DNA from: Methanomassiliicoccales archaeon LGM-RCC1
GTDB lineage: Archaea; Thermoplasmatota; Thermoplasmata; Methanomassiliicoccales; Methanomethylophilaceae
Length of the DNA stretch: 64,000 nucleotides
Reading direction: 5' to 3'
NCBI GenBank assembly: GCA_030168575.1
Contig: CP115555.1
Span: 496,001 to 560,000, forward strand
Part shown: positions 24,152-25,240 of the stretch, piece by piece
How positions within the stretch are numbered: the stretch's first letter is position 1
Layout: every line of letters begins with the position of its first letter
Translations under genes and position numbers: made by a program
Notes under the pieces: generated by a model
The model's input: only the letters and a program-made list of their open reading frames with translations
Database searches by the model: none
Told to the model about the DNA's origin: nothing

Positions 24152-24361
24152 TCAGTCCGCTCTCTGAAGCTCCTTTTCTGCAAGGTAACGGACATCCCTG
24201 ACGAGGTGCTCTTTGATATCGAGATCGACGATAGCCTCATCAATGGACATTTTGCGAATTCTGACTATCGAAGCTACTGAATGTGCATAGTTCTCAATCA
24301 AAATATCATCGATTTCCTGCTCCCTAAGCTCCTCAGCATAGCTCTTAGTCAATTCATCCAT
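24152..24361 (-). CDS. tandem 69-residue helical protein, copy 1
   Basis: 69 residues from the ATG at 24361, which follows a conserved CGATAGT box. The layout is an amphipathic helix (TKSYAEELREQEIDD), a second helix with SVASIVRIRKMSIDEAI, and a C-terminal helix with VRDVRYLAEKELQRAD. The charged, all-helical form and the tandem copies suggest a small regulatory or antitoxin-like protein, but no family is recognised. Residue 63 is Lys (AAG), the site that is TAG in copy 2. Confidence 0.55.
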   Translation of the reverse strand: MDELTKSYAEELREQEIDDILIENYAHSVASIVRIRKMSIDEAIVDLDIKEHLVRDVRYLAEKELQRAD

Positions 24362-24390: not shown

Positions 24391-24400
24391 TATTATAATC
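24391..24400 (-). promoter_or_regulatory. TATA box of tandem copy 1
   Basis: On the minus strand a GATTATAATA element lies about 30 nt before the ATG at 24361, after a conserved GGCAAG. The same box is found before the other two copies. Confidence 0.45.
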
Positions 24401-24515
24401 TTGCCTGTGCCGTTCCTCGTACTTCAAGAAATCAGTACATGCCCTGGAAGACAAAGGGTAGACGCATGATGGATGATAATAACGCGCGATTATGGAGTCG
24501 ATGATGTATGTCTAA

Positions 24516-24725
24516 TCAATCCGCTTTCTGAAGCTCCTACTCGGCGAGGAAACGAACGTCCCTGATGAGATACTCCTTGATGTTGAGCTTTACAAGGGCT
24601 TCGTCAATGGAGATGTTGTCGCTTCTGACCAACGCTACGACAAACTTAGCATCCTCTTCGATCAGGGCATCTTCCACTGCCTGCTCCAAGAGTTCCTCAG
24701 CGTAGCTCTTCACCGTTTCCTCCAT
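24516..24725 (-). CDS. tandem 69-residue helical protein, copy 2, with in-frame TAG
   Basis: Read through the TAG at 24537-24539 this gene is 210 nt, exactly the length of its two siblings, and ends in the same way: LAE-x-ELQKAD then TGA. The TAG is codon 63. Siblings have AAG (Lys) there, so one base change separates them. The six codons after the TAG are as conserved as the rest, and the TGA is at the same place. Loss of six residues by a fresh nonsense mutation is possible; amber readthrough would restore the full protein with pyrrolysine, a lysine derivative, at the lysine site. The start ATG at 24725 is supported by the repeated promoter. Confidence 0.6.
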
Positions 24726-24753
24726 ACTATCGATTAACAATCCGCTTGTCTTA

Positions 24754-24763
24754 ATTTTATAAT
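24754..24763 (-). promoter_or_regulatory. TATA box of tandem copy 2
   Basis: On the minus strand a GATTATAAAA-type element lies about 30 nt before the ATG at 24725, preceded by GGGCAA. It is conserved in all three copies. Confidence 0.5.
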
Positions 24764-24897
24764 CTTGCCCTTGCCGTTCCTTGCACTTCAAGAAATCGGT
24801 ACATTCTCTAGTTGGCAAACCGGGTAGACAATATGTACAATGCAAAGACCTATGTAGATGATGAGAACACCCTGATTTTGGTGTCGATGATATCTGA

Positions 24898-25107
24898 TCA
24901 ATCCCCTTTCTGAAGCTCCTTCTCGGCGAGGAAACGGATGTCTTTCTCTAATGATGGATCGATACTCAGATTGCTCATAGCCTCGTCTATCGAAATGTTA
25001 TTCCTCTTAACCATGAAAACGATATTCTTAGCCTGAACATCGATCTGCGCATCCTCGATGGCCTGCTCCCTGAGTTCCTCAGCGAAACTCTTTGCCGTTT
25101 CCTCCAT
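24898..25107 (-). CDS. tandem 69-residue helical protein, copy 3
   Basis: 69 residues: MEETAKSFAEELREQAIED, a central helix NIVFMVKRNNISIDEAM and a closing RFLAEKELQKGD. It is closest to copy 2 in its first and last segments. Lys63 is AAG. The ATG at 25107 lies directly after the conserved CGATAGT box. As with the other copies, the function is unknown. Confidence 0.55.
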   Translation of the reverse strand: MEETAKSFAEELREQAIEDAQIDVQAKNIVFMVKRNNISIDEAMSNLSIDPSLEKDIRFLAEKELQKGD

Positions 25108-25135
25108 ACTATCGATTTATCATCCGCATGTCTCA

Positions 25136-25145
25136 GTTTTATAAT
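25136..25145 (-). promoter_or_regulatory. TATA box of tandem copy 3
   Basis: On the minus strand GATTATAAAA lies about 30 nt before the ATG at 25107, preceded by GAGCAA. It has the same layout as the boxes of copies 1 and 2, which supports independent transcription of each copy. Confidence 0.5.
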
Positions 25146-25240
25146 CTTGCTCGTGCCGTTCCTGGTAACGATAAGGTTAGATCGCTCGCTAACTAAACAC
25201 TGAAAAACCAACCGTTCCCGACTTCAAAGAGAAGGATCGA

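What the first reader, a model, noticed from the sequence alone, without database searches (positions are those of the whole stretch)
24516..24725. TAG replaces a conserved Lys codon in one of three tandem paralogs
All three paralogs are exactly 210 nt if the TAG at 24537-24539 is read. The siblings have AAG there and the same six-codon tail ending in TGA. Pyrrolysine is a lysine derivative, so this is a natural one-step conversion of Lys to a possible Pyl site, with two internal controls alongside it.
Basis: partly seen in the sequence, partly recalled or inferred. Interest (0 to 1): 0.85.

Follow-up and report, generated by a model that had tools for sequence, protein, structure and literature searches.

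The report
Amber codon in archaeal antitoxin-like array
In a gut methanogen that reads the stop codon TAG as the amino acid pyrrolysine, one of three small tandem genes carries such a TAG seven codons from its end; the three genes look like detached antitoxin tails of a nuclease gene, and the TAG looks like an ordinary, probably neutral, use of this organism's known unusual code.

Summary
Three tandem minus-strand ORFs (24152-24361, 24516-24725, 24898-25107) are each 210 nt, and the middle one has TAG (24537-24539) where its siblings have AAG. The genome encodes tRNA-Pyl and PylSBCD and hardly uses TAG as a stop: 10 of 407 sampled genes, against 22.6% of stop triplets in intergenic DNA. It carries TAG inside a full-length aconitase, so reading this TAG as pyrrolysine is likely. 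In-frame TAGs of this sort have been described in this archaeal order since 2014. The six codons after the TAG add little evidence: they are conserved in every pair of copies, the 3' ends recombine, and no ortholog of copy 2 was found.

In a conspecific genome the same spot holds a 301-aa PD-(D/E)XK (Rpn-like) nuclease gene. Its last 67-68 residues, from an internal ATG behind a TATA-like element, are homologous to these ORFs. I read the three as stand-alone RpnS-type (antitoxin-like) genes from an rpn locus whose nuclease part is gone here. Copy 2's TAG is most likely a neutral Lys-to-Pyl change in its last helix. Interest is modest; a TAG shared beside the catalytic motif of related Rpn nucleases is the stronger lead.

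The parts
24516..24725 (-). copy 2: 69-codon ORF if TAG is read; 62 aa if TAG stops
24537..24539 (-). in-frame TAG, codon 63 of copy 2 (AAG in copies 1, 3 and the conspecific copy 1); lies in the third predicted helix, residues 51-67
24516..24536 (-). six codons after the TAG (E L Q K A D) plus the TGA stop
24152..24361 (-). copy 1: 69-aa paralog with an ortholog in conspecific MAG SIG9 (L027:5001-5210)
24898..25107 (-). copy 3: 69-aa paralog nearest the lost nuclease part
24755..24762 (-). TATA-like element TTATAAAA starting 37 nt before the ATG of copy 2; the same spacing is found in all three copies and inside the SIG9 full-length gene
24391..24398 (-). TATA-like element TTATAATA before copy 1
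25137..25144 (-). TATA-like element TTATAAAA before copy 3
25108..25188 (-). decayed upstream remnant matching Rpn codons from about 208 on, with in-frame TGA and TAA
   Evidence: G000:C1:520916-521188
24415..25233 (.). segment with copies 2 and 3 that stands where SIG9 has the full-length rpn-like gene (L027:3862-4947); flanks are 95.5-96.2% identical

Best explanation
The three 69-codon ORFs are tandem stand-alone copies of the C-terminal domain of an Rpn-type PD-(D/E)XK nuclease (RpnS-like, antitoxin-like), each with its own TATA-like element. In this strain the nuclease part of the locus is gone. The genome's pyrrolysine system reads TAG as a sense codon almost everywhere, so copy 2 is most likely made mainly as a 69-residue protein with pyrrolysine at residue 63, with some 62-residue product. 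The TAG most likely arose from AAG and persisted because it is tolerated, not because pyrrolysine has a job there. Shown: sequence homology, gene arrangement, the pyl machinery, TAG depletion as a stop, and sense TAG in aconitase and MtmB. Inferred: actual read-through at this codon, antitoxin function, neutrality.
For: Pyl machinery: tRNA-Pyl; PylS, PylB, PylC and PylD by NCBIfam, each above the cut-off of its family model. TAG as sense: of 407 genes called in 460 kb, TGA 362, TAA 35, TAG 10, against 22.6% TAG among intergenic stop triplets (P about 8e-32); six of the ten TAG 'ends' run on into clearly coding sequence and two do not. AcnA matches over residues 19-875 with TAG at codon 112; two MtmB genes match full length across a TAG. 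In the Rpn-like family of this archaeal family, 17 of 22 in-frame stops outside one PylS-negative genome are TAG (P about 8e-8, matches not fully independent). Identity of the paralogs: the conspecific MAG has a 301-aa ORF at this locus whose C-terminal 67-68 residues match (44-48% identity over about 85-90 residues, which include about 25 codons upstream of the ATG). A full-length gene plus a separate C-terminal-domain copy recurs at G000 974 kb, SIG9 and G017. D, E-x-Q and R-x3-Y are invariant across ten members, and the PF12784 (PD-(D/E)XK) hits in the genus fall on members of this family found independently. AlphaFold2 gives three helices with a long first one (pLDDT 86), as reported for RpnAS (PMC10327210).
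Against: No protein data. The truncated form would lose only seven residues at the end of a helix and could be what is made and works. No ortholog of copy 2 exists in the genomes searched, so conservation of the TAG cannot be tested. Homology to E. coli RpnA itself is not significant (hhalign probability 0.5%), and only one genus member passes the Pfam cut-off. The three copies lack the four-residue repeats typical of RpnS.
Confidence: 0.72

Rival explanations
1. TAG works as the stop: copy 2 makes a 62-residue protein that lacks the last seven residues, a slightly shortened working or decaying paralog.
For: The loss affects only the end of the last helix. C-termini in this family vary in length, and the conspecific full-length gene has its own TAG four codons before its TGA, so the end tolerates change. 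Two TAG-ended genes in the sample do look like true TAG stops.
Against: TAG is nearly absent as a stop genome-wide and lies inside a full-length aconitase. The frame stays open to a TGA at the same place as in the siblings.
Confidence: 0.17
2. The TAG is selected: pyrrolysine, or Pyl-dependent extension, tunes this antitoxin-like protein, so its amount or activity follows pyrrolysine or methylamine supply.
For: Independent TAGs near the 3' end of homologous domains in two strains. A TAG shared by four of six members of a related Rpn clade.
Against: The site is a single case without orthologs, residue 63 sits in a terminal helix, and the cognate nuclease is missing at this locus. No downstream RNA structure (z 0.65). 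At least one of the relatives' genomes is TAG-rich in general (21 of 135 genes in G069).
Confidence: 0.05
3. Sequencing or assembly error, or a nonsense mutation caught in a pseudogene.
For: One genome only. The array has recombined and the sequence upstream of copy 3 is decayed.
Against: Single-contig genome; the rest of copy 2 is intact with dN/dS of about 0.2. TAG is otherwise common in this gene family while TGA and TAA are rare.
Confidence: 0.06

Closest known systems
Pyl-containing proteins outside methyltransferases in Methanomassiliicoccales ('Ca. M. alvus', ISO4-G1, ISO4-H5; PMC4153887, PMC4824259, PMC5011839)
   Same: Constitutive-looking Pyl cassette, very low TAG stop use (1.6% in M. 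alvus), scattered genes with an in-frame TAG where relatives have none; Borrel et al. 2014 already propose that such mutations are stable in a suppressing background.
   Different: A tiny antitoxin-like gene in a tandem array, with the TAG seven codons from the end.
Pyl in Methanosarcina tRNA-His guanylyltransferase (Heinemann et al. 2009, 'by neutral evolution'; cited in PMC8211752)
   Same: A TAG that appears in one lineage of a gene and is attributed to neutral evolution.
   Different: Here there is no biochemistry, and the siblings lie next to each other in one genome.
Rpn toxin-antitoxin genes-within-genes (RpnL/RpnS; Zhong et al. 2023, PMC10327210)
   Same: PD-(D/E)XK nuclease with a C-terminal domain that can also be a separate downstream gene; tandem duplication; three-helix domain with a long first helix; loss and gain among strains.
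   Different: Archaeal and very divergent; a TATA-like element about 30-37 nt before the internal ATG suggests a near-leaderless transcript; here only the small genes remain at the locus.
Archaeal code with all TAG codons as pyrrolysine (recalled from memory as a 2025 paper; not in the library searched)
   Same: TAG treated as a sense codon genome-wide.
   Different: Not checked here; two searches found no held copy.

Membership tests
Pyl-decoded in-frame TAG gene | Genome encodes tRNA-Pyl (CUA), PylS and PylBCD | tested here: met
Pyl-decoded in-frame TAG gene | TAG rare as a stop and present inside full-length conserved genes | tested here: met
   (AcnA, two MtmB)
Pyl-decoded in-frame TAG gene | Homology to relatives continues past the TAG to a common stop | tested here: met
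   only six codons, and gene conversion in the tail weakens it
Pyl-decoded in-frame TAG gene | TAG conserved in orthologs | tested here: inconclusive
   no ortholog of copy 2 in 102 family genomes or by the search for related loci
Pyl-decoded in-frame TAG gene | Pyrrolysine detected in the protein | not testable with these tools
   needs mass spectrometry
Pyl-decoded in-frame TAG gene | Structured element after the TAG (PYLIS; not required, per PMC8211752) | tested here: not met
   z-score 0.65
Rpn toxin-antitoxin (RpnL/RpnS) | Full-length relative has a PD-(D/E)XK nuclease core | tested here: met
   D...E-x-Q...R-x3-Y invariant; PF12784 above cut-off in one genus member, below it in the rest
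Rpn toxin-antitoxin (RpnL/RpnS) | Significant profile similarity to E. coli RpnA | tested here: inconclusive
   motifs align, probability 0.5%
Rpn toxin-antitoxin (RpnL/RpnS) | C-terminal domain also encoded on its own, from an internal start or a separate gene | tested here: met
Rpn toxin-antitoxin (RpnL/RpnS) | RpnS is a three-helix bundle with a long first helix | tested here: met
   (AlphaFold2, 5 sequences, pLDDT 86); Foldseek found no significant match
Rpn toxin-antitoxin (RpnL/RpnS) | Variable four-residue repeats in the first helix | tested here: not met
   absent from the three copies; present in relatives such as L089 and L091
Rpn toxin-antitoxin (RpnL/RpnS) | Cognate full-length toxin at the locus | tested here: not met
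   none at this locus; two other full-length relatives in the genome have different C-terminal domains
Rpn toxin-antitoxin (RpnL/RpnS) | Small protein inhibits the full-length protein | not testable with these tools
   needs an expression assay

The most novel reading that the evidence does not exclude
In this genus pyrrolysine has become part of Rpn-type toxin-antitoxin proteins: a TAG is kept four residues before the catalytic Glu in a clade of the nucleases, and TAGs sit at the ends of antitoxin-like domains, so that production or activity of nuclease and inhibitor depends on pyrrolysine supply.
Probability: 0.07. Interest if true: 0.8.

Novelty: new member of a known kind. Interest (0 to 1): 0.36.

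Why it matters
It adds a tidy example of TAG behaving as a near-neutral sense codon in a Pyl-decoding archaeon. It also indicates that Rpn-like nucleases with separately encoded C-terminal domains exist in gut methanogens, with strain-level loss of the nuclease. The related nucleases that share a TAG beside the catalytic motif give a concrete place to ask whether pyrrolysine is ever kept for function outside the methylamine methyltransferases.

Tried and rejected
Pfam and NCBIfam on the 69-aa proteins and on the SIG9 full-length protein gave nothing of use. The PDB sequence search gave mainly designed proteins, matched through the helical C-terminal part, which I took as composition. Foldseek of the small model gave no hit below E 0.9. 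The full-length single-sequence fold was poor (pLDDT 45) and was not searched. Viral contigs and plasmids held no relative. RNA structure after the TAG: none. I considered that the TAG-rich Rpn family is a hotspot for Pyl, but at least one of the genomes concerned, G069, is TAG-rich overall, so no enrichment is claimed. I also dropped tail conservation as evidence for read-through, because the tail is conserved in all copy pairs and shows gene conversion.

Full report
What is there. Three minus-strand ORFs, 24152-24361, 24516-24725 and 24898-25107, are each 210 nt and end in TGA. Codon 63 of the middle one is TAG; the other two have AAG. The two siblings are each 62% identical to copy 2 in protein, differences concentrate at third positions, and NG86 dN/dS is 0.17-0.25 with dS near saturation. 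So these are old, constrained paralogs, not a chance frame. A profile search of the whole genome finds only these three.

The organism. The window lies in a single-contig 1.66-Mb genome of a methanogen family in which 75 of 102 genomes encode PylS. It has tRNA-Pyl with anticodon CUA, followed by PylS, PylB, PylC and PylD. I called genes in 460 kb, 28% of the genome, with a simple codon-usage caller. Of 407 genes, 362 end in TGA, 35 in TAA and 10 in TAG, while TAG makes up 22.6% of stop triplets between genes (P about 8e-32). Of the ten, six run on into clearly coding sequence, two do not, and two (copy 2 among them) are too short or weak to call. A complete AcnA aconitase (NCBIfam match over residues 19-875) carries TAG at codon 112, and two MtmB genes match full length across their TAG. 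Very low TAG stop use and scattered in-frame TAGs are described for this order (PMC4153887; PMC4824259; PMC5011839). Reading the TAG in copy 2 as pyrrolysine is therefore the expected outcome, though it is not shown.

What the paralogs are. In MAG SIG9 (SUTB01000002.1, L027; 'same species'), flanks 95.5-96.2% identical to the window enclose a different middle. There a 301-aa ORF (L027:3940-4845) is followed by an ortholog of copy 1 (L027:5001-5210). The last 67-68 residues of the long ORF, from an internal ATG, match the 69-aa proteins, and the homology runs about 25 codons upstream of the ATG. In the window that upstream part is decayed before copy 3, with in-frame TGA and TAA. All five copies have TTATAA starting 37 nt before the ATG, inside coding sequence in the long gene, which I read as an archaeal TATA box for a short-leader transcript. 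The long ORF belongs to a family present in 24 of 102 genomes of this archaeal family. Ten aligned members share invariant D, E-x-Q and R-x3-Y, and the PD-(D/E)XK model PF12784 hits members of this family in the genus, once above its cut-off. A separate C-terminal-domain gene behind a full-length gene recurs at 974 kb of this genome, in SIG9 and in G017. That is the arrangement described for Rpn systems, where the small C-terminal protein blocks the toxic full-length one and may be a separate downstream gene (PMC10327210). The small domain is predicted as three helices with a long first one, as reported for RpnAS. Against membership: similarity to E. coli RpnA is not significant, the four-residue repeats are missing from these copies, and function is untested. 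I file them as RpnS-like, not as proven RpnS.

The TAG in context. Residue 63 lies in the last helix (51-67). As AAG is found in both siblings and in the conspecific copy 1, TAG is the derived state. The tail after the TAG is well conserved, but so it is between copies 1 and 3, which have no TAG (15 of 18 nt). Copy 1 and its SIG9 ortholog are identical for 165 nt and then differ at 9 of 45, where the ortholog resembles the other copies, so 3' ends appear to be exchanged between copies. Identity over the first 165 nt is itself unusual given about 4% divergence of the flanks (P 0.0008). The conspecific full-length gene has its own TAG four codons before its TGA, perhaps from a CAG. Both cases fit a genome where TAG appears by mutation and is read. 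No RNA structure follows the TAG, and none is required (PMC8211752).

Side observation. Among related Rpn-like nucleases, four of six members of one clade (support 95/90) have TAG at the same column, four residues before the catalytic Glu: L072, L085, L071 and L075; the other two have Leu codons. Terminal branches of the four are about 0.4 to 1.0 changes per column, so TAG has lasted there as a sense codon. G069 uses TAG in 21 of 135 genes against 13 of 353 in this genome, and mean column identity in the clade is 52%, so function is not established.

Verdict. A functional role for pyrrolysine at this site is unsupported, and the kind of event is known.

Noticed in passing
L072, L085, L071, L075 (G069:C9, G069:C64, G067:C31, G070:C66): Rpn-like PD-(D/E)XK nucleases share a TAG at the same column, four residues before the catalytic Glu in (L/V)D(I/V)EGQ; two clade members have Leu there. 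A candidate long-kept Pyl site.
   Followed up: partly
L043:6208-8844 (G000:C1, about 1.206 Mb): Full-length aconitase AcnA with an in-frame TAG at codon 112.
   Followed up: partly
L027:3940-4845 (MAG SIG9): Full-length Rpn-like gene with an internal TATA-like element and start, and its own TAG four codons before the TGA.
   Followed up: yes
L097:1205-2161 and the 80-aa ORF behind it (G000:C1, 974 kb): Second rpn-like gene followed by a separate copy of its C-terminal domain; in SIG9 (L094) the long gene's C-terminal domain differs, while the downstream small gene nearly matches this genome's long-gene domain, suggesting domain exchange between long and small genes.
   Followed up: no
G000:C1:379474-380203 (L050, L054): Frameshifted Rpn-like pseudogene.
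   Followed up: no
copy 1 24197-24361 against L027:5001-5165: 165 nt identical between strains whose flanks differ by about 4%, then an abrupt change at the 3' end.
   Followed up: partly
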